From Urbifossiella limnaea (GTDB taxonomy: Bacteria; Planctomycetota; Planctomycetia; Gemmatales; Gemmataceae): DNA of 64,000 bases. The stretch covers positions 868,001-932,000 of the forward strand of contig NZ_CP036273.1 of the NCBI RefSeq assembly GCF_007747215.1. The letters run 5' to 3'. Positions within the stretch are counted from its first letter, which is position 1. Each line of letters begins with the position of its first letter. Made by a program: the position numbers and the translations under genes. This document shows, in pieces, positions 414 through 61,372 of the stretch. The notes under the pieces are model-generated. The model was not told the DNA's origin and made no database searches. It saw only the letters and a program-made list of their open reading frames with translations.

Positions 414-2077
414 CCGCGCCCGCCGTCGCCCTGTACTACGACCCCGACGGGTACGTCGAGCGGACCGCCCCCGGCCCGGCGGGGGCGGCGCGCGGGCTCA
501 TGGGGCGGCAGGTCGCCGGGCGAACCTTCCTCGACGCCTACCTCGCCCACGGCACCTGGGACACGCTCACGGCCGTGGTCCGCGACCGGCGGCGGGCGGC
601 GCCGCTCGCCGCCGCCGGCCGGGCGCACCCCGCGGCCCGCGGCCGGCGGCTGCGGGTGCTCACCGAGCGCGAGTTCCCGCCGGCCGCCGACCCGCCCGCC
701 GTCCTCCACTTCCCGAACCCGCCCGACCCGCGGTTCGCGTGGGCCCGCCACGCCGGCGGCTCCGGCGCCGCACTGTGCGGCGTCACCCACACCCTGGCCA
801 CGCCCGCCGCCGCCGCCGCGCTGTGCGACCTCGTCGCCGCCCCGTTCGAGCCGTGCGACGCGCTCGTGTGTACGTCCCGCGCCGTCGCCGCGATGGTCCG
901 CGCCGTCACCGACAGCTACCGGGCGTACCTCGCCGACCGCTGCGGCGCCGCACCGCCGCTGCGGCCGCGGCTCGAAATCATCCCGCTCGGGGTGGACCCG
1001 GCCGCGTTCCGCCCGCCCGACGCGGCCGCCCGCGCGGCCGCCCGGGCGCGGTTCGGCATCACCGACGACGAGGTGGTGGTGCTGTGCGTCGGCCGCCTGT
1101 CGCACCACGCCAAGGCGCACCCGTACCCGCTGTTCCACGCGGCGAGCGAGGCGGCCCGGCGGACCGGCGCGCGGGTGCGGCTGCTGATGGCCGGGTGGGC
1201 GGCGAACCCGGCGGTCGCGGCGGCGTTCGAGGGCGGGGCGCGCGTGTTCGCGCCGGCCGCGCGGGTGACGTTCGCCGACGGCCAGCACCCGGCCGTGCGC
1301 GCCGCCGCGTGGCCGGCCGCGGACGTGTTCGCGTCCCTGCCGGACAACGTGCAGGAGACGTTCGGCCTGGTCGTGGCCGAAGCGATGGCCAGCGGGCTGC
1401 CGGTCGTCGCCGCCGACTGGGACGGCTACCGCGACCTCGTCGCCGACGGCGAAACCGGCCTCCTGGTGCCGACGCGGCTCGTGGCCGGGGCGACCACGGG
1501 GGCGACGGGCCGGCTCCTCGGCGGCCTCACGAACTACGACCACTTCCTCGCCGAGTGCAGCCAGGCGGCGGCGGTCGATGCCGCGGCGGCGGCGGACGCG
1601 CTGACCCGGTTCGTGGCCGACGCGGCGCTGCGGGCGCGGCTCGGCGCGGCCGGGCGGGCGCGGGCCGTCGAGCGGTTCGCGTGGGGGCACGTCATCGCCG
1701 CCTACGAGGCGTTGTGGGCCGACCAGGCGCGGGAGTTCGCCGCGCGCCCGCCGCGGGCACACGGCCCGGTACGCTACCCGCCGCCCGAGGTGTCGTTCGC
1801 CGGCTACCCGACGGCGTGGCTGACCGACGCCGACGCGCTCGCCGCGGCGCCGGACGCGGCCCCGCGGCTGGCGGCGCTGCTCACGATGCCGCTCACCAAC
1901 CTCGCCGCCGCGAGCCGCTGCGCCGACCCGGCCGCGCTCGCGGCGCTGCTCGCCGCCGCACCGGCGACCCTCGGCGACCTCGCGCGCTCGCTGGAAAGTC
2001 GTGGCGTTCCCGCGGAGGCGGCGCGGGCCACGGTGGCGTGGCTGCTCAAGTACGGGCTGCTGGCGCCGGCCGGATGA
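410..2077 (+). CDS. Glycosyltransferase family 4 / GT-B type protein
   Basis: 555 residues; ATG overlaps the stop of the previous gene by 4 nt. The C-terminal half carries the GT-B donor-binding signature: an LCVGRLS strand, then DNVQETFGLVVAEAMASG with the EX7E spacing typical of GT4 retaining transferases, then GLPVVAADWDGYRDLV and a GETGLLVP loop. The N-terminal half is the acceptor-side Rossmann domain. About 130 extra residues follow the glycosyltransferase core and end in an alanine-rich helical tail of unknown role. The enzyme should transfer a sugar from an activated nucleotide sugar at the cytoplasmic face; the substrate cannot be told. Its 3' end overlaps the convergent gene at 2046-2906 by 32 nt. 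Confidence 0.8.
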   Translation: MTAPAVALYYDPDGYVERTAPGPAGAARGLMGRQVAGRTFLDAYLAHGTWDTLTAVVRDRRRAAPLAAAGRAHPAARGRRLRVLTEREFPPAADPPAVLHFPNPPDPRFAWARHAGGSGAALCGVTHTLATPAAAAALCDLVAAPFEPCDALVCTSRAVAAMVRAVTDSYRAYLADRCGAAPPLRPRLEIIPLGVDPAAFRPPDAAARAAARARFGITDDEVVVLCVGRLSHHAKAHPYPLFHAASEAARRTGARVRLLMAGWAANPAVAAAFEGGARVFAPAARVTFADGQHPAVRAAAWPAADVFASLPDNVQETFGLVVAEAMASGLPVVAADWDGYRDLVADGETGLLVPTRLVAGATTGATGRLLGGLTNYDHFLAECSQAAAVDAAAAADALTRFVADAALRARLGAAGRARAVERFAWGHVIAAYEALWADQAREFAARPPRAHGPVRYPPPEVSFAGYPTAWLTDADALAAAPDAAPRLAALLTMPLTNLAAASRCADPAALAALLAAAPATLGDLARSLESRGVPAEAARATVAWLLKYGLLAPAG

Positions 2078-2906
2078 GCGACAGGAAGGCGTCGCCGGCG
2101 TGCTCCACTTCGAGGAACGCGGCACACCCGTCGGCCGGCTTGTACACCCGGAACGCGCGCATGACGCCGAGCGTGGCCGCGCTCTCCAGCGGGCCGACGA
2201 ACGCGGCCGAGCGGTCGAGGAAGTCCGGCCGCACCGCCCACGCCGCCATCTGCCCGGCGGTGAGGAAGAAGCAGCCGGCGTGCGGGTTCAGCGGCCGGCG
2301 GAACACGAGCGGCAGGCCGAGCGCGTCGGCGCGCAACTCCGGCGTGTCGGTCACGTCCTGGAAGCGGGCGGTCACGTCGGGCCGGAGCGGGCCGTCGAGG
2401 TACGCCTTGTTCGCGGCCTTCCCGGCGGCCGCCTCGTAGCGGTTCGGTTGCAGCAGCGCCCCCTCGCCGAACGCCGCCGCGAACCAGCGGAGCTTCACGA
2501 AGAACAGCGGGTCGCGGAGCACGAGGTCGTCTTCGAGGTAGCAGTAGTAGTCGTACCCGGCGGCGAGCCGGTCGCGGAGCGCGGCGTGGCACTCGTACCC
2601 GAGCAGCCGGGGCTCGGCGGCGGTGGGCAGGTGCGCGAACCCGAGGCCGGCCGGGAGCCGGTCGAGGACGTGCCGGCCGCCGGTGGTGCAGACGAGCACG
2701 TCGGCGGTGCCGGCGGTGAGGTGGTTGGCGGGCGTGGTGGTGCGCCGGGCGATGTCGAGCACGCACTGCGGGCGGGCGAAGGTGCGGACGCCGGCGAGCA
2801 GGTCGGCGAGCGCCCGGGCGCGGGCGGCGGCGTCCGGGCGCGTGGACCCGTACCGCCCGCCGGGCTCGGGCGCAAAGTAGTGCGGGACGCAGAACAGCAG
2901 CCGCAT
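2046..2906 (-). CDS. Hypothetical protein resembling a GT-A type glycosyltransferase
   Basis: 286 residues from ATG at 2906; the frame is open further upstream, but this start gives a natural hydrophobic beta strand (MRLLFCVPHYFAP). A central YCYLEDDLVLRDP segment looks like the DxD-type metal/sugar-nucleotide motif of GT-A enzymes. It is followed by a conserved-looking FFVKLRWF and, later, a PLNPHAGCFFLTAGQ stretch. No signal peptide or membrane segment is seen. The neighbouring convergent gene is a GT4 enzyme, which fits a small glycan-modification locus. The tail-to-tail overlap of 32 nt is unusual but both reading frames look genuine. Family assignment is tentative; I recognise the motif, not the exact family. 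Confidence 0.6.
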   Translation of the reverse strand: MRLLFCVPHYFAPEPGGRYGSTRPDAAARARALADLLAGVRTFARPQCVLDIARRTTTPANHLTAGTADVLVCTTGGRHVLDRLPAGLGFAHLPTAAEPRLLGYECHAALRDRLAAGYDYYCYLEDDLVLRDPLFFVKLRWFAAAFGEGALLQPNRYEAAAGKAANKAYLDGPLRPDVTARFQDVTDTPELRADALGLPLVFRRPLNPHAGCFFLTAGQMAAWAVRPDFLDRSAAFVGPLESAATLGVMRAFRVYKPADGCAAFLEVEHAGDAFLSLIRPAPAART

Positions 2907-3134
2907 CCGACGCCCCCGCCTCGCTGGTGACCGCCGCCGGCGGTCGGAGTCACTGTACGGCCGGCGACCGTCGCGCGGGACGCGGTCAGCGGGCGGAAAC
3001 CCCGCCGGCGCCTGTCCCCGGGTGTTCTTCCCCACTACACCGTCTCGGGAGCCACCCGGAACGACCCACCACCGGCCCGCCGCACCGCACTTCGGTCGTC
3101 CGGCTGTCGAAAGCCCGAGTCGGGGGATCGGCCC

Positions 3135-5582
3135 ATGCCCGCGACACTGTCGCCACCGTGTCGGACCAACCGCCGCGGCCGCGGCGGACGATACCCGTTG
3201 ATGCTCGCGCTGGTCGCGGGGCTCGGGTTGCAAGGCCAGGGGGCGAGCGGGCCGGCCGACCCCGCCTCCAAGGTCGGCCCGGCCGCGCCCCTCTTCGCAC
3301 AACACTGCCAGGCGTGCCACACCGGCGACAAGGCGAAGGGCCAGTTCCGCCTCGACAGCCTCACGTCGGACTTCAGCGACAAGGCCAACCGCGAGCGCTG
3401 GGCCGCGGTACTGGAGCAGGTCGAGTCCGGGGCCATGCCGCCGAAAGGGAAGGCCCGCCCGGCGGAGAAGGATGTCGCCGCGCTGGTCGGGTGGGTCAAC
3501 GGGCGGGCCTCGGCGGCGCAGGCGGTGCAGGGGCGCGTCCCGCTGCGCCGGCTCAATCGCGCCGAGTACCAGAACACCGTCCGCGACCTGCTCGGCGTGG
3601 ACCTCGACCTGACCGACCTGCTCCCCCCGGACGCGGCCGCGAACGGGTTCGACAACGCCGCCGAGGCGCTGCACGTCTCGTCGTTCCTGATGGAGCAGTA
3701 CCTCGAAGCCGCCGACAAGGTGCTCGACGCCGCGGTGGCCAACGGGCCGCGGCCGTGGCTGCTGAAGAAGCGCTACGACATCAAGGACGAGAAGTCGGTG
3801 CGGCCCACCGGCAGCGTCTACCGACACCTGGAGGACTCGGTCGCCATCTTCGGCTCGTGGGTGTCAGCGAACATCCAGGTCACCCTGTGGAACTTCCGCA
3901 CGCACTTCCGCGGCAACTACCGCGTCCGCATCTCGGCCTACGCCTTCCAGACGGACAAGCCCGTCACCTTCCACGTGACCGCCGGCACACTCACGGCCGT
4001 GACCGAGGAGCGGATCGTCGGCTACCACGACGTGCCGCCCGGCCGGCCGACGGTGATCGAGTTCGTCGAGAAGCTGGAGGCGAAGAACTGCATGCGGCTC
4101 GTCGTGGACGGGCTCGGCGTGACGCCGCCGGTGATCGAGAAGGTGGGGGCGGACAAGTACACCGGGCCGGGCCTGGCCGTGCAGTGGGTGGAAGTCGAGG
4201 GGCCGCTGCACGACACCTGGCCGCCCGCGAGTCACCGCCGGCTGTTCGGCGACCTGAAGCAGGCGCCGGCCCCGACGCCGGAGGACAAGAACCGCCTGGA
4301 GGTCGCGTCGACGCAACCGCTGGCCGACGCCGAGCGCCTCCTCCGCGGCTTCCTCCCGCGGGCCTTCCGCCGGCCGGTGACCGACGACGAGGTGAAGCCG
4401 TTCCTGGCCCGCGTGAAGGCCAAGCTGGACGCGGGCTTCTCGTTCGAGCAGGCGATGCGCGTCGGGTACAAGGCCGCGCTCGTCTCGCCGCACTTCCTGT
4501 TCCTGCGCGAGAAGCCCGGCCGGCTGGACGACTTCGCCCTTGCCAGCCGGCTGTCGTACTTCCTGTGGAGTTCCATGCCCGACGAGGAACTCCTCACCCT
4601 CGCCGCGGCCGGGAAGCTGACCGACGCCGGCACGCTGCGCACTCAGGTCGAGCGGATGCTGAGGGACCGGAAGGCGGCCGCGTTCACCGAGAACTTCGCC
4701 GGCCAGTGGCTCGACCTCCGCAAGATCGACGACACCGCCCCCGACCCGGCGCTCTACCCGGAGTACGACGACATCCTCAAGACGGCGATGGTGAAGGAGG
4801 CGCAGCTGTTCTTCGACGAGGTGCTCAAGAACGACCTGCCCCTGACGACGTTCGTGGCCTCCGACTTCACGCTGCTCAACGGCCGGCTGGCGCGGCACTA
4901 CCGCATCCCCGGCGTGACCGGCCAGGAGTTCCGGCGCGTGGCGCTGCCGCCGGGGAGCCACCGCGGCGGCGTCCTCACGATGGCGGCCGTGATGAAGGTG
5001 ACGGCCAACGGCACCACCACGTCGCCGGTCCAGCGCGGGTCGTGGGTACTCGATCGCATCCTCGGCACGCCGCCGCCGAAGCCGACGGTGGACGTGGAGG
5101 CCGTCGAGCCGGACATTCGCGGCGCGACGACGATCCGCGAGCAGCTGGCGAAGCACCGGGCGCGGGCCGAGTGCGCCGGCTGTCACGCGAAGATCGACCC
5201 GCCGGGGTTCGCGCTGGAGAGCTTCGACGTGATCGGCGGCTGGCGCGACTACTACCGGAGCGTCGGAGCCGGCGGCCCGGCGGTCGTGGACGGCCGCACC
5301 ATGCGGTACAAGAAGGGTCCAGACGTGAACCCGGCCGACGCGCTGCCGGACGGGGCGCGGTTCAAGGACGTGGACGAGTTCCGGCAACTCCTGCTGCGCG
5401 ACCGTGACCAGCTCGCCCGCGCGATGACCCAACGGCTGCTGACCTACGCCACCGGCGGCGCGCCCACGTCGGCCGACCGGCCGGAGGTCGAGGGGATCGT
5501 CGCCCGGGTCCGCGAGAAGAACTACAGCTTCCGGGCGCTCGTCCACGAGGTGGTGCAGAGCCGGCTGTTCCAGAGTAAGTGA
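3135..5582 (+). CDS. DUF1592-family protein with planctomycete cytochrome c domain (copy 1)
   Basis: 815 residues with a possible N-terminal export helix (the hydrophobic run begins near residue 22; an ATG at 3201 is an alternative start). Domain order fits the planctomycete PSD architecture: a haem-binding CQACH at residues 58-62, then DUF1587 (RRLNRAEYQNTVRDLLG), DUF1595, DUF1592 (LASRLSYFLWSSMPDEEL), DUF1588 with a second CAGCH at about 680-684, and DUF1585 at the C-terminus. It probably acts outside the cytoplasmic membrane as a c-type cytochrome subunit. The catalytic reaction of the DUF domains is not known to me. It is translationally coupled to the DUF1552 gene that follows, the usual partner. 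Confidence 0.9.
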   Translation: MPATLSPPCRTNRRGRGGRYPLMLALVAGLGLQGQGASGPADPASKVGPAAPLFAQHCQACHTGDKAKGQFRLDSLTSDFSDKANRERWAAVLEQVESGAMPPKGKARPAEKDVAALVGWVNGRASAAQAVQGRVPLRRLNRAEYQNTVRDLLGVDLDLTDLLPPDAAANGFDNAAEALHVSSFLMEQYLEAADKVLDAAVANGPRPWLLKKRYDIKDEKSVRPTGSVYRHLEDSVAIFGSWVSANIQVTLWNFRTHFRGNYRVRISAYAFQTDKPVTFHVTAGTLTAVTEERIVGYHDVPPGRPTVIEFVEKLEAKNCMRLVVDGLGVTPPVIEKVGADKYTGPGLAVQWVEVEGPLHDTWPPASHRRLFGDLKQAPAPTPEDKNRLEVASTQPLADAERLLRGFLPRAFRRPVTDDEVKPFLARVKAKLDAGFSFEQAMRVGYKAALVSPHFLFLREKPGRLDDFALASRLSYFLWSSMPDEELLTLAAAGKLTDAGTLRTQVERMLRDRKAAAFTENFAGQWLDLRKIDDTAPDPALYPEYDDILKTAMVKEAQLFFDEVLKNDLPLTTFVASDFTLLNGRLARHYRIPGVTGQEFRRVALPPGSHRGGVLTMAAVMKVTANGTTTSPVQRGSWVLDRILGTPPPKPTVDVEAVEPDIRGATTIREQLAKHRARAECAGCHAKIDPPGFALESFDVIGGWRDYYRSVGAGGPAVVDGRTMRYKKGPDVNPADALPDGARFKDVDEFRQLLLRDRDQLARAMTQRLLTYATGGAPTSADRPEVEGIVARVREKNYSFRALVHEVVQSRLFQSK

Positions 5583-15570: not shown

Positions 15571-15662
15571 AGTTTAGTCAGGATAACAGGATGAACGGGA
15601 TGCCGAACCGGGCTGATGATCTCGGTGCGGCATCCCGTTCATCCTGTTATCCTGTCTAAACT
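15571..15662. repeat. ACAGGAT-type hairpin element, copy 1
   Basis: Arms 15571-15610 and 15623-15662 pair over 40 positions with about two mismatches and a 12-nt loop. Each arm is a run of the word ACAGGAT/ACGGGAT (GTCAGGATAACAGGATGAACGGGATG on the left, shown in part). It sits between the epimerase and dus, both on the + strand. The arms are much less GC-rich than the surrounding genes. Confidence 0.85.
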
Positions 15663-15725: not shown

Positions 15726-16823
15726 ATGACGCAGCCCGACCTCCCGCCGCCGCCGGCCTGGTACCGCGAGCCCGTCGCCATCGGCGGCATCCCGATGGCG
15801 TCGCGGTTCAACCTCGCCCCGCTCGCCGGGTACACCAACCTGCCGTTCCGCCTGTCCGTCCGCGAGATCGGCGGCGTCGGCCTCTGCACCAGCGACCTCG
15901 TCAACGCCCGCGCCATCCTCGAAGGCCTGAAGAAGACTCAGGAACTGCTCGCCACCGCGCCCGCGGAGCGGCCGCTGTTCGTGCAAATCTTCGGCAGCAA
16001 CGCCGACGAGATGGGCCGCGCCGCGGCGTGGCTCGTGGCCCACGAAAAGGCCGACGGCGTCGACATCAACATGGGCTGCCCGGTCCGCAAGGTCGTGAAG
16101 ACCGGCGGCGGATCCAGCATGTTGTGCGACACCTCCGGCGCCACCGTCGCGCTGGTGCGCCGCGTCGTGGAGGCGGTGACGGTGCCGGTGACGGTGAAGA
16201 TGCGGCTCGGCTGGGACGACGACCAACTCACGGCGCCGTTCTTTGCCCGCGAGTTCGAGCAGGCCGGCGTGGCAGCGCTCACCATCCACGGCCGGACGCG
16301 CGAGCAGGGGTTTAGCGGCGGCGTCAACCACGACGGCATCCGGCGCGTGGTGGAGGCGGTGCAGCGCATCCCGGTGTACGGCAACGGCGACGTGCGGAGC
16401 GTGGCCGACGCGGCGCGGATGATCGACGAGACGGGGTGTCACGGCATCGCGCTGGGCCGCGGGGCGCTGGCGAACCCGTGGGTGTTCCGCCAGTTCGACC
16501 GCTGGGTGCGGACCGGCGACCCCGGCCCCCGGGCGACGTACCACGAGCGGCTCGACTTCATGCGGCTCCACCTGCGCCGGCTGATCGACTGGCGCGGCGG
16601 CGAGAAGTACGGGTGCGTGCAGTTCCGCAAGGTGGCGACGTGGTACACGAAGGCGCTGCGGATGCCGAAGCGCACGCAGGCGGCGCTGGTGATGCTGGAG
16701 AACCTGGCGCAGTTCGAGGAGCTGGTGGCGCCGTTCGCGGCAGAGCCGCCGCCGGGGTGGAGCGAGTACGACGCGCAGCAGGCGCACGTCGCGGTGCCGG
16801 CCGGCCCCATCAGCCACTGGTGA
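15726..16823 (+). CDS. dus: tRNA-dihydrouridine synthase (DusB-type)
   Basis: 365 residues. FMN-dependent reduction of uridine to dihydrouridine in tRNA. The sequence shows the Dus signatures in order: NLAPLAGYTNLPFR at the first barrel strand, FVQIFGSN, DINMGCPVRKVVK with the catalytic Cys at residue 118, VKMRLGWDD, TIHGRTREQGF, PVYGNGDV and GIALGRGALANPW. The C-terminal helical tRNA-binding domain (residues about 255-345) is present, so the enzyme looks complete. It is cytoplasmic. Assignment to DusB rather than another bacterial Dus is by resemblance only. The stop is followed by a TGACGAA-word hairpin shared with the convergent Gfo/Idh gene. Confidence 0.92.
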   Translation: MTQPDLPPPPAWYREPVAIGGIPMASRFNLAPLAGYTNLPFRLSVREIGGVGLCTSDLVNARAILEGLKKTQELLATAPAERPLFVQIFGSNADEMGRAAAWLVAHEKADGVDINMGCPVRKVVKTGGGSSMLCDTSGATVALVRRVVEAVTVPVTVKMRLGWDDDQLTAPFFAREFEQAGVAALTIHGRTREQGFSGGVNHDGIRRVVEAVQRIPVYGNGDVRSVADAARMIDETGCHGIALGRGALANPWVFRQFDRWVRTGDPGPRATYHERLDFMRLHLRRLIDWRGGEKYGCVQFRKVATWYTKALRMPKRTQAALVMLENLAQFEELVAPFAAEPPPGWSEYDAQQAHVAVPAGPISHW

Positions 16824-16830
16824 CGCGGCA

Positions 16831-16898
16831 CATGACGAAGGACGAATGACGAATGACGACACCGGTTCTCGTCCTTCGTCATTCGTCCTTCGTCATTC
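16831..16898. repeat. TGACGAA-word hairpin between convergent genes
   Basis: Left arm about 16832-16859 and right arm about 16869-16896 are tandem TGACGAA/GGACGAA words and pair over roughly 27 nt with a loop near CACCGGTTCT. The hairpin lies exactly between the stop of dus (16823) and the stop of the opposing oxidoreductase (16904), so it could end transcription from both sides. There is no T-run as in a classical intrinsic terminator. Confidence 0.8.
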
Positions 16899-16903
16899 CC
16901 GAG

Positions 16904-18319
16904 TCATTGGCCCCGTACCACGTCCCAGCCGCGGCGGTACTCCTTCCGTACCAGCCGGTTCGCCGCCTCGTTGTTGCTGATCGCCGCCTTCGCCGCGTCC
17001 CAGCGGATCTCGGTGCCGGCGAACCGCACCGCGATGTTCCCCAGCAGCATCGCCTCCGTCAGCCGGCCGGCGTAGTCGAAGTTGCTGAACGCCATCTCGG
17101 GACGGCCCGCCCGGATGGCGTCGGCCCACTCCTTCTTCTGGTAGGCGTCGTGGGCGCCGCCCTGGTCGGTCGTCGCGCCCGCGGGAATCGTCTCGGGGCG
17201 CTCCAGCTGTCGGCCCATCGCCAGCGCGTCGGGCACGATCCGCCAGCGGTTGCCGTAGTCGCTCGGGCTGAACAGGATGCCCTTGTCGCCGACCAGGAGC
17301 GAGCCGCTGTCGGTCAGCTGCTCGCCGGGCCGCAGCACCTTCGACACCAGCTCGGCCGGCGGCAGCACCTTGTTCGTGCCGCGCTTCCCCTCGTACCAGT
17401 GGAGCGTCACCGCCGGCTGCGAGTTGCGGGCTGGGAACTTGTACTGGATGTGGCCCCACGCGGGGAACGTCTCGGCGTTGATCTCGCCGGCCTGCGCGAC
17501 CACCGACTCGGGGGCGTCCAGGTTCAGGGCGCGGAACGGCATGTTCGCCGTGTGGCAGGCCATGTCGCCGAGGGCGCCGGTGCCGAAGTCCCAGAACCCG
17601 CGCCAGTCGTGCGGGTGGTACGCCGGCCGCGGGGCGAACGCCACCGCGTACGGCCGCATCGGCGCCGGCCCGATCCACTCCTCCCAGTGGACGTGCTTCG
17701 GCACCGGCGCCTCCGTCGGCCGCGCCGTGATGTCCGGCGACTGCTTCCAGTACTGCGCCGGGCGGTTCGTCCAGACGTGCGCCTCGGCCACGGTACCGAT
17801 GATGCCGCCGCGGACCAGCTCGACGGCGCGGCGGAGGCCGTTCAGCGCCGAGCCCTGGTTCCCCATCTGGGTGCACACCTTGTAGCGCGCCGCGGCCTCG
17901 CGCAGGAGGCGCGCCTCCTCGACGGTGTGGGTCAGCGGCTTCTGGCAGTAGACGTGCTTGCGCTGCCGCATGGCCAGCATCGCGGCCGGGGCGTGGTGGT
18001 GGTCGGCGGTGGACACGACGACGGCGTCGAAGGTGCCGGCGGCGCGCTCGAACAGGGTGCGGTAGTCGAAGAACTTCGCGGCCCGCGGGAAGGTGGCGGC
18101 CTTCTGGTCGAGCCGCTGGTCGTCGATGTCGCAGAGGGCGACGACCTCCATCTCGCGGCCGGCCTGGTCGATGTCGGACGAACCCTTGCCGCCGATGCCG
18201 ATGCCGGCGACGCGGAGGCGGTCGTTGGCCCCGGCGGCGCGGGTGACGGAGAAGGCGGGGCCGGTGAGGAGGTAGCCGGCGGCGGCGAGGGCGCGGCGGC
18301 GGCTGACGCGGCGGGTCAT
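16904..18319 (-). CDS. Gfo/Idh/MocA family oxidoreductase, Tat-exported
   Basis: 471 residues. The N-terminus MTRRVSRRRALAAAGYLL is a Tat-type leader; the mature domain opens with RLRVAGIGIGGKGSSD, a GxGxxG dinucleotide-binding fold, followed by VVALCDIDDQR. The family's conserved CQKPLTHTVEEARLLREAA (the EKP-type catalytic lysine) and a GNQGS segment are visible, and the C-terminal half is the substrate-binding alpha/beta domain (GALGDMACHTANMPFRALNL). Such planctomycete proteins are periplasmic sugar oxidoreductases that carry a tightly bound NAD(P); the substrate is unknown. The stop codon TGA is embedded in AATGACTCGG at the edge of the adjacent hairpin. Confidence 0.88.
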   Translation of the reverse strand: MTRRVSRRRALAAAGYLLTGPAFSVTRAAGANDRLRVAGIGIGGKGSSDIDQAGREMEVVALCDIDDQRLDQKAATFPRAAKFFDYRTLFERAAGTFDAVVVSTADHHHAPAAMLAMRQRKHVYCQKPLTHTVEEARLLREAAARYKVCTQMGNQGSALNGLRRAVELVRGGIIGTVAEAHVWTNRPAQYWKQSPDITARPTEAPVPKHVHWEEWIGPAPMRPYAVAFAPRPAYHPHDWRGFWDFGTGALGDMACHTANMPFRALNLDAPESVVAQAGEINAETFPAWGHIQYKFPARNSQPAVTLHWYEGKRGTNKVLPPAELVSKVLRPGEQLTDSGSLLVGDKGILFSPSDYGNRWRIVPDALAMGRQLERPETIPAGATTDQGGAHDAYQKKEWADAIRAGRPEMAFSNFDYAGRLTEAMLLGNIAVRFAGTEIRWDAAKAAISNNEAANRLVRKEYRRGWDVVRGQ

Positions 18320-24031: not shown

Positions 24032-24092
24032 ATGACGAATGACGAATGACGACTGACGAATGACGCGGTTCGTCATTCGTCAGTCGTCATTT
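24031..24092. repeat. AATGACG-word hairpin between convergent genes
   Basis: 24045-24065 and 24071-24091 form a perfect 21-bp stem with loop CGGTT; two further AATGACG words precede the left arm (24031-24044). Genes from both sides stop at its edges: the VOC gene (TGA at 24029-24031) and the secreted protein (TAA followed directly by ATGACGA on its strand). Confidence 0.85.
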
Positions 24093-24570
24093 ACTTCTGC
24101 TTCTTCTCGGTGATGATGAGCGTGCCCTTCTCGTTCTTCTTCTCGAAGCTGCCGACCCAGATGTCGTACTGGCCGGTCTTCGGGTTGTTGAACGTGATCC
24201 GCGGGTTGTCGTCGCCGTCGCTGTCGTCGTCGGCCACCCACTTGCCGTCGGGCGTGTTGATGAGCAGCGTGGTGTCGCCCTTGCTGGCGAACTTGATGGT
24301 CAGCTTGAACTCGCCGGTGGTGTAGTTCAGGCGGTAGTCCGGAGCCTTCGAGATCCAGGCGGTGACGCCGCCCTTGTCGGTCTGGACGTTGCCGCCGGTG
24401 ACGATGTCGGGCACCACGAACGGGTCGGGCTCGAAGCCGCCCTTGAGGCGGGCCGAGCCGAACGTCGGGGCGAGGGACACGTCCTGCGACACGGCCCGGT
24501 CGCCGAACCCGACCAGTGCCGTCGCGGCGACGCCGAGCAGGACGAGCCGCTTTCCGGAAGCCAGTTTCAT
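24091..24570 (-). CDS. Small secreted protein with pre-peptidase C-terminal (PPC)-like fold
   Basis: 159 residues from ATG at 24570, fixed by a perfect AGGAGG at 24578-24583. It begins with a signal peptide (KRLVLLGVAATALVGF, cleavage near AVSQ). The mature part has a beta-sandwich pattern (YTTGEFKLTIKFASKGDTTL, LINTPDGKWVADDDSDGDDN, GQYDIWVGSFEK) reminiscent of PPC domains, in which acidic turns bind calcium. It ends KKQK. There is no catalytic motif; PPC domains usually bind or help secretion of enzymes, but here the domain stands alone. Strong ribosome binding suggests it is well expressed. Function unknown. Confidence 0.7.
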   Translation of the reverse strand: MKLASGKRLVLLGVAATALVGFGDRAVSQDVSLAPTFGSARLKGGFEPDPFVVPDIVTGGNVQTDKGGVTAWISKAPDYRLNYTTGEFKLTIKFASKGDTTLLINTPDGKWVADDDSDGDDNPRITFNNPKTGQYDIWVGSFEKKNEKGTLIITEKKQK

Positions 24571-38967: not shown

Positions 38968-38979
38968 GTGTCGAAGAAG

Positions 38980-39071
38980 AGTTTAGACAGGATAACAGGA
39001 TGAACAGGATACCGAACCGAAGGCACGGCCTTGGTTCGGTATCCTGTTCATCCTGTTATCCTGTCTAAACT
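38980..39071. repeat. ACAGGAT-type hairpin element, copy 3 (perfect)
   Basis: 38980-39018 and 39033-39071 form a perfect 39-bp stem; the 14-nt loop extends it by AAGGC/GCCTT. Each arm runs GACAGGATAACAGGATGAAC then AGGATACCGAACC. It lies between convergent genes ending at 38967 and 39083. Confidence 0.9.
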
Positions 39072-39082
39072 CCTGGTTTTCG

Positions 39083-46527: not shown

Positions 46528-46576
46528 CGTCATTCGTCATTCGTCATTCGTCATTCGTCATTCGTCATTCGTCATT
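46528..46576. repeat. Seven tandem CGTCATT units (TGACGAA word, minus-strand orientation)
   Basis: Seven nearly perfect 7-nt units between the glycosyltransferase start and smpB. On the minus strand they read AATGACG repeated; the stop codon of smpB (TGA at 46572-46574) is part of the last unit. Unlike other copies it has no inverted partner beside it, but the same word in opposite orientation lies at 47415-47443. Confidence 0.85.
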
Positions 46577-47054
46577 TGCGTCGCCGCGACGCGGACATCG
46601 CCCGGTCGATCTCGCGCCGGGCGTCGGCCGTCTTCAGCGACTCGCGCTTGTCGTGGCTCTGCTTCCCCTTGCCGACGCCCAGCTCCAGCTTGGCGCGGCC
46701 GTCCCGGAAGTACAGCCGCAGCGGCACCAGCGTGAACCCCTTGATGTCCGCCTTCTCGGCGAACTTGGCGATCTCGCGGCGGTGCAGCAGCAACTTCCGC
46801 GGCCGCTTCGGCTTGTGGTTCTGGCGGTTGCCGTACAGGTACTCCGGAATCTCGGCGCCGATCAGCCACACCTCGCGGCCGTCGATGCGGGCGTAGGCCT
46901 CGTCGATGGTGGCGTGCCCGTCGCGGAGGCTCTTCACCTCGGTGCCCACGAGCACGAGGCCGCACTCGATCGTGTCGGTGACGGCGTAGTCGTGCGTGGC
47001 GCGGCGGTTGCGGCAGACGGTCGTCTGGCCTTCGGGGTCCTTCGACTTCGCCAT
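46572..47054 (-). CDS. smpB: SsrA-binding protein SmpB
   Basis: 160 residues from ATG at 47054. SmpB binds tmRNA and brings it to stalled ribosomes for trans-translation. The OB-fold core is plain: RRATHDYAVTDTIECGLVLVGTEVKSLRDG, then EAYARIDGREVWLIGAEIPEYLYGN (both quoted in part), PKRPRKLLLHRREIAKF and KGFTLVPLRLYFRDGRAKLELGVGKGK. The conserved C-terminal tail (KRESLKTADARREIDRAMSA) that enters the decoding site is present. Complete and normal in size. The tmRNA gene is not seen in this window. The stop codon belongs to a tandem TGACGAA repeat. Confidence 0.95.
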   Translation of the reverse strand: MAKSKDPEGQTTVCRNRRATHDYAVTDTIECGLVLVGTEVKSLRDGHATIDEAYARIDGREVWLIGAEIPEYLYGNRQNHKPKRPRKLLLHRREIAKFAEKADIKGFTLVPLRLYFRDGRAKLELGVGKGKQSHDKRESLKTADARREIDRAMSASRRRK

Positions 47055-47101: not shown

Positions 47102-47431
47102 GTGCCCCGCTTCGTGGTCCTTTCGCACGACTGGCCGGAGCCGCACTTCGACCTGCTGCTCGAAGCGGGGCCGGTGCTGCGGGCGTGGCGGCTGCGCGGC
47201 GAGCCGGGCGCGGCGGCGGTGCCGGCCGAGCCGAACGCCGACCACCGCACGCTCTACCTCGACTACGAAGGCCCGGTGTCCGGCGGCCGCGGCAGCGTGA
47301 CGCGCTGGGACGCGGGGACGTTCGACTGGATTGTGGAGGCGGCGTGCGCCGTGGTGGAGTTGCGCGGCGAGCGGCTCACGGGGCGGTTCGTGATCGGCGA
47401 CGGGCTCTGCCGAGTGACGAATGACGAATGA
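47102..47431 (+). CDS. Stand-alone LigD-type 3'-phosphoesterase domain protein
   Basis: 109 residues from GTG at 47102. The sequence matches the phosphoesterase (PE) part of multidomain DNA ligase D: FVVLSHDWPEPHFDLLLEAG gives H9, D10, H15 and D17, the metal-binding set, and HRTLYLDYEGPVSGGRGSVTRWDAG follows (quoted in part). No ligase or polymerase domain is present, so it may trim 3'-phosphates or 3'-ribonucleotides from broken ends together with enzymes encoded elsewhere. The last residues (VTNDE) and stop come from a tandem TGACGAA repeat. It is divergent from smpB with 47 nt between starts. Other homologues of this stand-alone type are known from planctomycetes, from memory. Confidence 0.72.
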   Translation: MPRFVVLSHDWPEPHFDLLLEAGPVLRAWRLRGEPGAAAVPAEPNADHRTLYLDYEGPVSGGRGSVTRWDAGTFDWIVEAACAVVELRGERLTGRFVIGDGLCRVTNDE

Positions 47432-47443
47432 CGAATGACGACG
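47415..47443. repeat. Four tandem TGACGAA units (plus orientation)
   Basis: Four units at the 3' end of the phosphoesterase gene; the first units encode its last residues and the stop. It mirrors the seven units at 46528-46576, so the pair flanks the smpB/phosphoesterase segment in inverted orientation. Confidence 0.8.
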
Positions 47444-50215: not shown

Positions 50216-50312
50216 GACAGGATAACAGGATGAAGCAGGACGGAAAACAAAGACAGAATTCAATTCGATTTTTGCCTTTGTTTTCCATCCTGCTTCATCC
50301 TGTTATCCTGTC
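50216..50312. repeat. ACAGGAT-type hairpin element, copy 4
   Basis: Arms about 50216-50254 and 50274-50312 (GACAGGATAACAGGATGAAG then CAGGAYGGAAAACAAAG) pair with two mismatches around a 19-nt AT-rich loop. The third word differs from the other copies (GAAGCAGGAC/T instead of GAACAGGAT) but does so on both arms. Confidence 0.85.
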
Positions 50313-57669: not shown

Positions 57670-59235
57670 TCAGCTCACCAGCAGCGCGTGCCCGGTGAGC
57701 ACCGTCAGCGCCGGGTCGAGGACTGCCGTCAGCGCCTCGCGCACGGCCGCGTCCCCCGTCACCGGCTTGCCGTTCCGCGCCACCTGTAGCTGCCCCGCCA
57801 CCGCGTCCGCGGTCAGCGCTTCCACCAGCTCCGGCCGCGTGCGGGTGCCGTCGAGCAGCGGCACCAGCCGCTTGTCCAGGTCGGTCAGCTTCACCAGCTC
57901 GTGCCGGCGGTTCGTGACCATCGCCGCGCCCGCCCCGGCCTGCAGCCGCGCCGACTTCACCACTTCCGGCTTCTCCCCCGGTACCCGCGACACCGCGATC
58001 GGCGCCGCGTGCAACTCCAGCAGGTCGGACGAGATGTACGTGTTCACCAGCCCCAGCGCCAGCGTCTTGCCGTCGTCGTCGAGCGTGTCCGCGGGGCGGC
58101 CGAGGAGGAGGCGCGACTCGGTCAGCAACTCGTCGAACGGCGTCGTACCCGGCCAGCGCTCGCCGAGCACCTGCATGGCCGCCTTCAGCAGCGGGCGGTT
58201 GGTCGAGAGCGTCATGCCGCTGCGCGTCTGGTACTGGGCCGGCGCCTCGGTGTTGATGTCGGGCGGGTTCTTGGTCGCCGGCTTGCCGGCGGACGCGACG
58301 TGCATCGTGCGCACGGCGGCGGGGTCGATCGTCCAGTTCGGCGTGGCCGCGGCGGGGACGAGGAGCGTTTCGCGGAACGTGCGGTTGCGCAGGAAGTCCA
58401 TGTACTGCTCGGTCTGCACCTGGTCCGCGGCGAGGGTGCGGAGCGTCTTCTGCACGTCCGGCCCGAAGTTGCCGGTGACCATCGTGCCGACACGTGCCTC
58501 GCCCATGTAGCGGAGGCCGTGCGCCTCCGCCATCGCCACGAACTGGTGGAAGTACAGCGGGTCGTTGTTCTCCTCCAGGTGTTCGTGGAAGAGGTAGTGG
58601 TCGGCCTGCTTGCGGACGCTCTCCAACTCGGCCTTCAGCAGCGCGGTGTAGGCGCCCTCCTGGCGGTTGGACGCGGCGAGGAAGTCGAGCAGCGCCCGCG
58701 CCTGGCCGACGCGCTGCTTCGCGTCCGGGAAGCGCATGGCGTGGTAGCGCATCATGTCGCGGATCATGCCGCGCATGTGCCACCCGGGGTACGTGTTGTA
58801 GCTGACGTAGGCGACGCCGTTCGGCGCCAGCCGGCGGGCGCACACGTCGAGGATCGCGTCGCGGACGGTGGTCGGCACCCACGAGAAGACGCCGTGGCAG
58901 ACCACGTAGTCGAACGTGCCGTAGGACTCGTCCACGTCGGTGATGCTCGCGTGGCGCAGCTCGATGTTCTTCAACCCGAGCCGCGTCACGAACGCGACGC
59001 CGTCGGCGACCTGGCGCGCGGACAGGTCCACGCCGACGCAGTGGGACTGCGGGAAGCGTTCGGCGACGGGGACGAGGTTGCCGCCGGCCGCGGCGCCGAG
59101 TTCGAGGACGCGCGCCGTCTGGACCGGCGGCGGGTTCAGACCGAACAGCCGGGCCACGACCGCGAGCCGCGACGGGTGCGTCTGGGCGTACGGGTGGCTG
59201 TCGTAGGGGACCTCGTCATACGTGTTCGATTCCAT
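57670..59235 (-). CDS. SAM-dependent methyltransferase with PKMT-type regulatory domain
   Basis: 521 residues. Class I methyltransferase fold at the N-terminus: RVLELGAAAGGNLVP (motif I, about 43-53), HCVGVDLSARQVAD (motif II), and FDYVVCHGVFSWVP. The middle (about 225-330) matches the methyltransferase regulatory domain found in rickettsial protein-lysine methyltransferases, with FLRNRTFRETLLVP typical of it. The C-terminal 170 residues have a winged-helix-like segment (LTDLDKRLVPLLDGTRT) as in those enzymes. It should methylate a protein or small molecule in the cytoplasm; no candidate target is nearby. The start lies next to a long AATGACC hairpin shared with the divergent channel gene. 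Confidence 0.85.
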   Translation of the reverse strand: MESNTYDEVPYDSHPYAQTHPSRLAVVARLFGLNPPPVQTARVLELGAAAGGNLVPVAERFPQSHCVGVDLSARQVADGVAFVTRLGLKNIELRHASITDVDESYGTFDYVVCHGVFSWVPTTVRDAILDVCARRLAPNGVAYVSYNTYPGWHMRGMIRDMMRYHAMRFPDAKQRVGQARALLDFLAASNRQEGAYTALLKAELESVRKQADHYLFHEHLEENNDPLYFHQFVAMAEAHGLRYMGEARVGTMVTGNFGPDVQKTLRTLAADQVQTEQYMDFLRNRTFRETLLVPAAATPNWTIDPAAVRTMHVASAGKPATKNPPDINTEAPAQYQTRSGMTLSTNRPLLKAAMQVLGERWPGTTPFDELLTESRLLLGRPADTLDDDGKTLALGLVNTYISSDLLELHAAPIAVSRVPGEKPEVVKSARLQAGAGAAMVTNRRHELVKLTDLDKRLVPLLDGTRTRPELVEALTADAVAGQLQVARNGKPVTGDAAVREALTAVLDPALTVLTGHALLVS

Positions 59236-59258
59236 TCCCGTGTTGTAGGCCGGCCCCC

Positions 59259-59393
59259 GGAATGACCAATTCCCAATGACCCGCCAATGACCAAGGGAAG
59301 GAACCGAACCCCACGGTAGGCGGTGCGGGCGGCGACCGACTCACACCACGTCCGGCCTTGGTCATTGGTGGGTCATTGGGATTTGGTCATTCC
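59259..59393. repeat. AATGACC-word hairpin between divergent genes
   Basis: 59259-59296 and 59356-59393 form a 38-bp stem with two mismatches (AATGACCAATTCCCAATGAC and following on the left) around a 59-nt loop. This copy lies between two gene starts (methyltransferase and RCK protein), so the element is not limited to gene ends. Confidence 0.85.
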
Positions 59394-59449
59394 GCGGCGC
59401 CAGGGTAGAACGGCCTCCGTCTAACACCTCGAACCGTGGAGGAGCCCAA

Positions 59450-61372
59450 GTGGACCGATCGGTCGTGCTGTGCGGGCTCGGGCGGGTCGGGTGGCGGGTG
59501 CTGGAGTCGCTCCGCGCCGCCGGCCAGCCCGTCGCCGTCGTCGACACGCACCCGCCGCTCGACGACCCGCGTCTCGCCGGCCTCACGGTCGTCGTCGGCG
59601 ACTGCCGCAAGCCCGAAGTGTTGGAAAGGGCGGGCGTCGGCGGCGCGGCCGCGGTCCTCATTGTCACCGGCGACGACCTGGTGAACGTGTCCGCGGCGCT
59701 GATCGTGCGGCAGCTCAACGCCGACGTCCGCGTCGTCCTGCGGATGTTCAACCAGAACCTCCTCGACCGGCTCGGCGCGGCCGTCAAGAACACCACCGCC
59801 CTGAGCGTCTCCGGCCTCGTCGCGCCGCTGCTGGCGCTGACCGCCGCCACCGGCGAGGCGCTCGGCGCGTTCAAGCTCGACAGCGGCCCCCAGCAGATCG
59901 CCGAGCTCGTCGTCGCCGACGGGACCGACCTCGCCGGCCGGCCGCTCGCCGACGTGGCGGGGCAGTACGGCGTCGTGCCGCTGGCCGTCGGCGCGGACGG
60001 CGCCGAGCCGCGCTTCTTGCTCGACGTGCGCGGCGACACCCGGTTGTCGGTCGGCGACCGGCTCGTCGTCGCCGGCGCGCCGGCGGCGGTGCGGCCGCTG
60101 CTGGAGACGGTCCGCGGCGACCTGCTGCCGGGCGTCCGCTGGGCCGGGGCCGTGCGCCGCTGGCTGCGCACCGCCGTCACCACGCTCGGCGAGGTGGACC
60201 TGGCGGTGAAGGTCATCACGCCGGTGCTGTTCGTCGCGCTCCTCGCCAGCACGCTGACGTTCCGGTACGGCCTCGAGTCGAGCTGGGCCGACGGCGTGTA
60301 CCAGTCGGTGAGCGTGATGGCGACCGGGGCCGAGCTCCGCGGCGACGCCCGGCCCGAGTGGGCGAAGGTGTTCCTGAGCGTGCTCAAGCTGGTCGGCGCG
60401 GCGCTGCTCGCCGGGTTCACCGCCATCCTGACGAACTACCTGATCCGCGCCCGCCTCGGCGGCGCGCTGGAGGTGCGGCGCGTGCCCGACGGCGGGCACG
60501 TCGTGGTGTGCGGCCTCGGCAACCTGGGCTACCGGTGCGTCGAGGCGCTGACCGCGATCGGCGAGCGGGTGGTGGCCATCGACCGGACCAACGACAACCC
60601 GTTCATCGCCACCTGCCGGCGGAAGGGGGTGCCGGCGTTCGTCGGCGACGCGACCGTGGCCGAGGTGTTGAGGCAGGCCCGCGCCGACACCGCGAAGGCC
60701 GTCATCGCCGCGACCGACTCCGAGCTGGCGAACCTGGAGATCGCACTGCTGGTGAAGGAGTTCGCGCCGAAGGCCCGGCTCGTGGTGCGGCTGTCGGACC
60801 CGCTCTTTGCCGGGGCGCTGCGCGAGTCGGCGGGGGTGCGGCACGCGGTGTCCGAGCCGGCGCTGGCGGCCCCGGCGTTCGCCGCGGCGCTGTTCGGCGA
60901 CCGCGTCCAGACGCTGGTGCGGGCGATCGGCCGCACGCTGGTCGTCGTCGAGTTCTCGCCGCAGCCCGACGGGTGCGGCCTGGCCGGGAAGTCGCTGCGG
61001 GCGGCGGCGGTCGACTACCGCTTCCTGCCGCTGTCGCTGAACGGCCAGAACCCGGCGACGATGCCGGACCGGCGGCTGAAGCCGGGCGACCGCGTGACCG
61101 CGGTGGCGGAGTTGCCGGACCTGGAGCGGCTGCTGCGGCGGGCGCCCGTGGCGAAGGACCGGCGGGTGGTGGTGGACGGCTTTCCGAAGACGGCTCGGGA
61201 GGCGCTCCTGCCGCTGGTGCGGGCGGCGCGGCGGTGCTCGCAGGACGAGGCGGACGCGGTGCTGGCGGCGCCGCCGTTCGTGGCCGCCGACGGGCTGACG
61301 CGCGGCGAGGCGGACGAACTGCTGGCGCAGCTCGGTCGGGAGCGGGTGACGGCGCGGGCGGAAGTGGGCTGA
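59450..61372 (+). CDS. RCK-TM2-RCK channel-like protein with non-standard selectivity filter
   Basis: 640 residues. An N-terminal TrkA/RCK domain (VLCGLGRVGWRVLESL, GxGxxG at 9-14; VVDTHPPL with ribose-binding acid) with a TrkA-C part is followed by two transmembrane helices (ITPVLFVALLASTLTFRYG and WAKVFLSVLKLVGAALLAG with a pore loop between), then a second RCK domain (VVVCGLGNLGYRCVEAL, GxGxxG at 355-360) and a C-terminal tail. The pore loop reads WADGVYQSVSVMATGAEL where potassium channels have TxGYG, so ion selectivity is uncertain. Such proteins are gated by NAD(H) or nucleotides through RCK. The domain order RCK-TM-RCK is rare compared with TM-RCK. No signal peptide. Confidence 0.8.
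   Translation: MDRSVVLCGLGRVGWRVLESLRAAGQPVAVVDTHPPLDDPRLAGLTVVVGDCRKPEVLERAGVGGAAAVLIVTGDDLVNVSAALIVRQLNADVRVVLRMFNQNLLDRLGAAVKNTTALSVSGLVAPLLALTAATGEALGAFKLDSGPQQIAELVVADGTDLAGRPLADVAGQYGVVPLAVGADGAEPRFLLDVRGDTRLSVGDRLVVAGAPAAVRPLLETVRGDLLPGVRWAGAVRRWLRTAVTTLGEVDLAVKVITPVLFVALLASTLTFRYGLESSWADGVYQSVSVMATGAELRGDARPEWAKVFLSVLKLVGAALLAGFTAILTNYLIRARLGGALEVRRVPDGGHVVVCGLGNLGYRCVEALTAIGERVVAIDRTNDNPFIATCRRKGVPAFVGDATVAEVLRQARADTAKAVIAATDSELANLEIALLVKEFAPKARLVVRLSDPLFAGALRESAGVRHAVSEPALAAPAFAAALFGDRVQTLVRAIGRTLVVVEFSPQPDGCGLAGKSLRAAAVDYRFLPLSLNGQNPATMPDRRLKPGDRVTAVAELPDLERLLRRAPVAKDRRVVVDGFPKTAREALLPLVRAARRCSQDEADAVLAAPPFVAADGLTRGEADELLAQLGRERVTARAEVG

What the first reader, a model, noticed from the sequence alone, without database searches (positions are those of the whole stretch)
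59259..59393. AATGACC hairpin between divergent promoters
A 38-bp near-perfect stem of AATGACC words occupies the shared upstream region of the methyltransferase and channel genes. Its word is close to the AATGACG type, but here it cannot be a transcription end for either gene, so the family must have another origin or role (mobile element, boundary, regulation).
Basis: partly seen in the sequence, partly recalled or inferred. Interest (0 to 1): 0.55.

Follow-up and report, generated by a model that had tools for sequence, protein, structure and literature searches.

The report
Gene-end palindrome between two promoters
This DNA hairpin is one copy of a repeat that a group of planctomycete bacteria carries mostly right behind the stop codons of genes, and this copy is one of the few that lie in front of genes instead.

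Summary
The hairpin is real: arms 59255-59296 and 59356-59397, 39 of 42 pairs matched, 59-nt loop. It is one of 53 copies of a palindromic repeat in this genome, also found in four of five other genomes of the genus. AATGACC and AATGACG forms are one family: mixed copies exist, and the same gene end can carry C-words in one species and G-words in the other. The family lives at gene ends: 17 convergent, 29 tandem, 5 divergent, 2 overlapping a gene; 62 of 63 gene ends facing a copy touch it or lie within 20 nt, and the repeat's own TGA is often the stop codon. So this divergent copy is the exception, not the key to the family. The closest relative has it too, before the same channel gene but behind a sigma-factor gene. 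The arms of a copy change together (93% alike within, 59% between species, 15 pairs) without excess of G-U over A-C mismatches (20:20), which points to DNA-level arm correction. Best reading: a long REP-like gene-end palindrome without a known transposase; terminator, translational brake or passenger is not settled.

The parts
59255..59296 (+). left arm of the palindrome (AATGACC words)
   Evidence: covariance model match 59253-59399, 84 bits
59297..59355 (.). loop, 59 nt; most own copies have a centre about 42 nt shorter
   Evidence: only 56% identical to the loop in G001, shuffles 51%
59356..59397 (+). right arm of the palindrome (GGTCATT words)
57670..59235 (-). methyltransferase gene (methyltransferase fold, regulatory and PKMT winged-helix domains); start 19 nt left of the stem
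59450..61372 (+). channel-type gene with TrkA-N/TrkA-C domains; start 52 nt right of the stem
16814..16913 (.). AATGACG-type copy of the same family, convergent gene ends
24037..24099 (.). AATGACG-type copy of the same family, convergent gene ends

Best explanation
It is one copy of a dispersed, REP-like palindromic repeat of this Gemmataceae genus. SHOWN: the copies sit directly behind stop codons, often supplying the stop codon itself; they occur in convergent and tandem gaps and rarely in divergent ones; 15 of 33 copies of the nearest relative are at the place of a copy here; the two arms of a copy stay complementary while the sequence is rewritten; no AATGAC copy was found beside a Y1/RAYT-type transposase gene. 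INFERRED: copies arise and spread as units; the arms are kept equal at DNA level by fold-back template switching or by conversion between copies; when transcribed, the hairpin acts at the 3' end of the message (slowing the ribosome at the stop codon, shielding or ending the transcript). At this window site there is no gene end, so that effect has no target here: the copy is a resident at least as old as the split from G001. Because only 19 nt separate it from the methyltransferase start, the promoter of that gene should overlap the left arm or lie inside the element, so an influence on that gene is possible but unproven.
For: Family and extent. Position: 46 of 53 copies convergent or tandem, 5 divergent, against 50 divergent of 142 element-free gaps (Fisher p 4.8e-4); 62 of 63 facing gene ends touch the copy or lie within 20 nt; 23 of 60 stop codons are a TGA inside the repeat (uncorrected context set). 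Same site in G001 with arms 95% and 83% identical while loop and flank are near random. Arms 0.93 alike within a copy, 0.59 between species, 15 of 15 pairs. G-U 20, A-C 20 in 50 tandem copies. Hairpins gained, lost or exchanged at mapped places. REPs are likewise mostly convergent/unidirectional, can supply stop codons (PMC3733652, passages) and within 15 nt of a stop codon stall ribosomes (PMC12306157, passages).
Against: No movement of an AATGAC copy was seen directly: no clean empty site of this family was available, and no transposase is linked to it. 15 shared places out of 33 mean that many copies are old. The strong tie to stop codons is also what terminators would show. Gene calls come from a simple caller of my own.
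Confidence: 0.58

Rival explanations
1. The family are bidirectional intrinsic transcription terminators of an unusually long kind without T-tract; the window copy is an orphan left when the gene that it ended was lost or moved.
For: Position behind stop codons and enrichment between convergent genes (17 convergent of 51 classed copies against 12 of 142 gaps, p 6.6e-5); long hairpins of other families at 16 of 25 convergent gaps without a copy against 6 of 58 divergent ones; different hairpin families at the same gene end in two species in 4 mapped places; in G001 a + strand gene precedes the copy.
Against: T is only 12% of the 12 bases after the stem; 11 of 29 tandem copies leave less than 20 nt before the next start codon; tandem gaps minus the copy are shorter than usual (median 42 against 75); copies follow both rpoA and rplQ in G005; no G-U excess in the stems; in G001 the copy lies 78 nt from the preceding stop, not snug.
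Confidence: 0.25
2. The stem is a regulatory DNA element of this gene pair: a cruciform or protein site between the divergent promoters that couples or insulates methyltransferase and channel genes.
For: Same spacing to the channel start in G001 (51 and 52 nt) and arms far better conserved than loop and flank; two further divergent copies, L011 and L079, are divergent in G001 too (L136, L088).
Against: 53 copies at unrelated genes; in G001 the methyltransferase is separated from the copy by a sigma-factor gene; in G002-G005 both genes lack a copy upstream. Arm similarity may come from homogenisation within the family.
Confidence: 0.1
3. The copies are true REPs moved by a RAYT (Y1 transposase) of the genus.
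For: Y1 genes in all six genomes of the genus searched; several are flanked by their own GC-rich hairpin families, on both sides in L129 and L130; in one place of the own genome such a gene with its hairpin stands where G001 has an AATGAC copy.
Against: 0 matches of the family model in the 31 Y1 loci tested; stems of about 40 bp against 5-13 bp of tagged REPs (PMC3733652, passages); no GTAG or CGTC unpaired tag recognised by eye.
Confidence: 0.06

Closest known systems
REP elements (repetitive extragenic palindromes; GTAG and CGTC super-families)
   Same: Dispersed palindromes, mostly between convergent or unidirectional genes, close to or overlapping stop codons, sometimes supplying the stop codon (PMC3733652, passages); many within 15 nt of a stop codon (PMC12306157, passages).
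   Different: Unit of about 88-105 bp with stems of about 40 bp, no tag seen, no RAYT link found, no G-U excess (PMC3733652 reports frequent GT pairing in REPs), arms evolve in concert.
RAYT-flanking hairpins of this same genus (found here: L129, L130, L150 and others)
   Same: Long palindromes at gene ends of the same genomes.
   Different: GC-rich and linked to a Y1 gene; the AATGAC family is AT-richer and is not.
Intrinsic transcription terminators
   Same: Strong hairpin behind genes, favoured between convergent genes.
   Different: No T-tract, stem far longer than usual, often with little room for a promoter of the next gene.
Template-switch-corrected (quasi)palindromes (PMC8794818, passages)
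   Same: Many-base mirrored changes of both arms, perfect stems kept.
   Different: That work treats RNA genes; here the RNA signature is missing. No ancestral reconstruction was done here.

Membership tests
REP elements | dispersed intergenic palindromes in many copies, mainly in convergent and unidirectional gaps | tested here: met
   53 own copies, 17 convergent, 29 tandem, 5 divergent, 2 overlapping a gene
REP elements | small unit (20-40 bp; stem 5-13 bp for tagged families) | tested here: not met
   units of 63-147 nt by the model, stems of 21-51 aligned pairs in own copies; REP sizes from PMC3733652
REP elements | unpaired GTAG or CGTC tag at one end | tested here: inconclusive
   none recognised by eye in alignment A1/A2 and flanks; no formal scan
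REP elements (RAYT-mobilised) | copies flanking a Y1/RAYT gene | tested here: not met
   0 family matches in 31 Y1 loci, although other hairpin families do flank them
Intrinsic terminator | hairpin followed by a T-tract | tested here: not met
   no terminator-like site at 59100-59600; 12% T after tandem copies
Intrinsic terminator | ends transcription | not testable with these tools
   no transcript data
Structured RNA kept by selection | covariation with G-U intermediates on the transcribed strand | tested here: not met
   covariation present (25 of 46 pairs) but G-U 20 against A-C 20 in 50 tandem copies
Insertion element (MITE type) | target site duplication and clean empty sites | tested here: inconclusive
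   no duplication apparent by eye in the flanks printed; no clean empty site of an AATGAC copy among held relatives

The most novel reading that the evidence does not exclude
In this genus the place right behind the stop codon is a kept 'hairpin slot': what is conserved between species is that a long, nearly perfect palindrome is there, while its sequence (AATGACC, AATGACG or an unrelated family) is exchanged or rewritten in both arms at once by a DNA-level process, and the repeat may supply the stop codon itself. Hairpins would then be domesticated as interchangeable gene ends, with stray copies such as this one between promoters.
Probability: 0.3. Interest if true: 0.75.

Novelty: new variant of a known kind. 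Interest (0 to 1): 0.47.

Why it matters
The family links gene ends, stop codons and concerted evolution of inverted repeats in a phylum whose gene-end signals are little known to me. Literature searches on Gemmata inverted repeats, planctomycete palindromes, terminators or transcription starts, RAYT in planctomycetes and Gemmataceae palindromes listed no paper on this family, judged by the listings alone. It also shows how covariation, usually taken as a mark of RNA structure, can be strong where no sign of selection on RNA pairing is seen.

Tried and rejected
Chance or low complexity: rejected. Rfam family: no match in 58500-60500. Sigma-70 promoter or T-tract terminator at the site: none found. 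Family moved by the Y1 genes found here: no AATGAC copy beside them. Genes between closely spaced copies being transposases: in L067, L041, L085 and L030 they are ordinary host genes. RNA-level selection as the keeper of pairing: not supported. Orphan-after-gene-loss for this copy: left open, because G001 has a sigma-factor gene between methyltransferase and copy, but the 15-bp direct repeat around it fits a gain in G001 as well as a loss here. G002-G005 gave no empty site: methyltransferase and channel genes lie apart there. The first context count gave 8 divergent copies; three of them (L022, L025, one of L067) were misses of my gene caller, corrected; the counts use the uncorrected contexts. 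Papers on template switching beyond the one cited were seen as listings only.

Full report
1. The observation. The stem exists: arms 59255-59296 and 59356-59397, 42 nt, 93% complementary, 59 nt apart. It lies between a methyltransferase gene (57670-59235, -) and a TrkA/channel-type gene (59450-61372, +), 19 and 52 nt from the start codons. Word pairs of this type are far above chance in the window (24 against 0.5). Rfam gives no match and simple scans give no promoter-like or terminator-like site.

2. A genome-wide family. A similarity search of the own genome (G000, 7.8 Mb) gave 100 matching pieces, which I group into about 32 places. The copies align as one palindrome with the left arm GGAATGACCAATTnCCAATGACCCACCAATGACCAAGG, a short centre, and the mirrored right arm. 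A covariance model (R1) was built from 25 copies: 23 own ones, L039 of G001 and L041 of G005. Left out of it were the window copy and the odd or partial own copies then held (L015, L023, one of the two of L030, L031, L032, L033, L036, L038) and the other relatives' copies then held (second of L041, L040, L042-L047). It has 46 pairs, 25 of them with changes on both sides, against 13.5 in shuffles and 11-16 in slid versions. R1 gives 103 matches, both strands counted, in the own genome at E 0.001 and 53 distinct copies at E 0.05 in the 50 own sources held. L031 holds only a right arm and is not among the 53. Of 41 genomes searched 7 match: the own one, G001, G002, G004 and G005 of the same genus (G003 of the genus has none), G015 of the same family and G035 of the same class (the last two not looked at further). 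Contigs of G001 and G005 have the same lengths as the records found for Bacterium isolate SCN18_30_10_14_R2_B_71_11 and a Gemmataceae bacterium MAG, from which I infer the family.

3. Where the copies sit. I called genes with a simple codon-usage caller. Of 53 own copies 17 are convergent, 29 tandem, 5 divergent and 2 overlap a gene; 142 element-free gaps of at least 100 nt are 12 convergent, 80 tandem, 50 divergent (Fisher p 6.6e-5 for convergent, 4.8e-4 for divergent). 62 of 63 gene ends that face a copy overlap its edge or lie within 20 nt, all 29 upstream stops of tandem copies included. In the first, uncorrected set 23 of 60 stop codons were a TGA inside the repeat, and 19 facing ends had the offset (-12) at which the stop is the TGA of the first AATGAC word of a full-length copy. 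In G001 33 copies give 22 tandem, 5 divergent, 3 convergent, 2 at contig ends, 1 overlapping a gene, with 25 of 28 facing gene ends close. The window copy is thus one of five tight divergent exceptions (with L011, L020, L073 and L079).

4. This site in relatives. Both genes have one match each in all five other genomes of the genus. Only in G001 (83-84% identical proteins) are they near each other: methyltransferase (-), an ECF sigma-factor gene with a long C-terminal part (+), then a copy, then the channel gene (+) (sigma-70 domains). Two blocks collinear with the window meet at window 59231-59232, where G001 has about 2 kb more; the extra piece has TCCATTCCGTTGTAC at both sides (seen). Spacing from copy to channel start is 51 and 52 nt. 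Arms are 95% and 83% identical, the loop 56% and the flank 62% (shuffles 51%), the first 600 nt of the channel gene 85%. One pair has changed between A-T and C-G on both arms (sequences). In G002-G005 I saw no copy before either gene in the stretches read.

5. Conserved place, rewritten sequence. 15 of 33 G001 copies lie at the place of an own copy; two of these pairs (L011/L136, L079/L088) are divergent in both. Of the other 18, 16 have no matching flank in the own sequence held, L147 is cut by a contig end, and L092:3974-4112 meets an own place that holds a Y1-transposase-like gene with another hairpin (weak Y1 and REP-transposase matches). In the 15 pairs the two arms of one copy agree at 0.93 on average, the same arm between species at 0.59, with the same direction in every pair. 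In 7 of the 15 pairs one species has AATGACC words and the other AATGACG (my reading), so both types are one family. Mismatches in the stems of 50 tandem copies (own and relatives, uncorrected contexts) are 20 G-U, 20 A-C and 39 other of 1939 pairs: no sign that RNA pairing is what selection sees. Mirrored changes without G-U steps are what template switching predicts (PMC8794818, passages); conversion between copies would do as well.

6. Other hairpins. In the same own sources 63 rows of other long hairpins (one place counted twice) are 16 convergent, 41 tandem, 5 divergent, 1 inside a gene (the printed counter also gives 48 rows for the AATGAC copies themselves). Of gaps without an AATGAC copy 16 of 25 convergent, 43 of 121 tandem and 6 of 58 divergent hold a hairpin of score 14 or more; in block-shuffled versions of 257 gaps 0 do. 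Several GC-rich families flank Y1 genes: both sides in L129 and L130, one side in L150 and others. None of 31 Y1 loci has an AATGAC copy. Of 20 hairpin places in G001 that map on own sequence 15 have an own hairpin nearby (one of them, L145:5886, probably a chance match in coding sequence), 4 of the 15 of another family, and 5 have none above threshold (one of these five, L138:1636, shows an imperfect inverted repeat by eye). One of the five, L040:2509-2594, separates two genes that overlap in the own genome.

7. Reading. Location, stop-codon supply and turnover resemble REPs (PMC3733652 and PMC12306157, passages), but the unit is longer, untagged as far as seen, and without a RAYT. Against plain terminators: no T-tract, 11 of 29 tandem copies leave less than 20 nt before the next start, tandem gaps minus the copy are shorter than usual (median 42 against 75), and copies follow both rpoA and rplQ in G005. 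For terminators: the tie to stop codons and convergent gaps, and the exchange of hairpin families at one place. I hold a REP-like gene-end palindrome most likely (0.58), with terminator as the main rival (0.25). For the window copy itself no function is shown.

Noticed in passing
window 46528-46577 and 47413-47440: Single arms without a partner: (CGTCATT)7 and (AATGACG)3 arrays, each right at a gene end with the stop codon inside the array. They may be half-made or half-lost copies.
   Followed up: partly
window 15571-15662, 38979-39072, 50216-50312: Another long palindrome family with CAGGAT words (arms 40-46 nt), also at gene ends; present in G001 at one place where the own genome has none (L040:2509-2594).
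   Followed up: partly
L129:1126-1929, L130:1361-1978, L150:1429-2151: Y1 (RAYT-like) genes flanked by their own GC-rich hairpins: probable REP/RAYT systems in this planctomycete.
   Followed up: partly
L041 (G005) 1423-3241: AATGAC copies directly behind rpoA and again behind rplQ, genes that are usually transcribed together (recalled).
   Followed up: no
window 59236-59254: Only 19 nt between methyltransferase start and stem; a GTACAACGGAATGGA-like stretch lies upstream of the methyltransferase and again beside the copy in G001 and may be its promoter.
   Followed up: no
L102, L088, L134, L136 and other G001 copies of 135-164 nt: Many G001 copies are longer, with the stem continued by CCCGAA-type words.
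   Followed up: no
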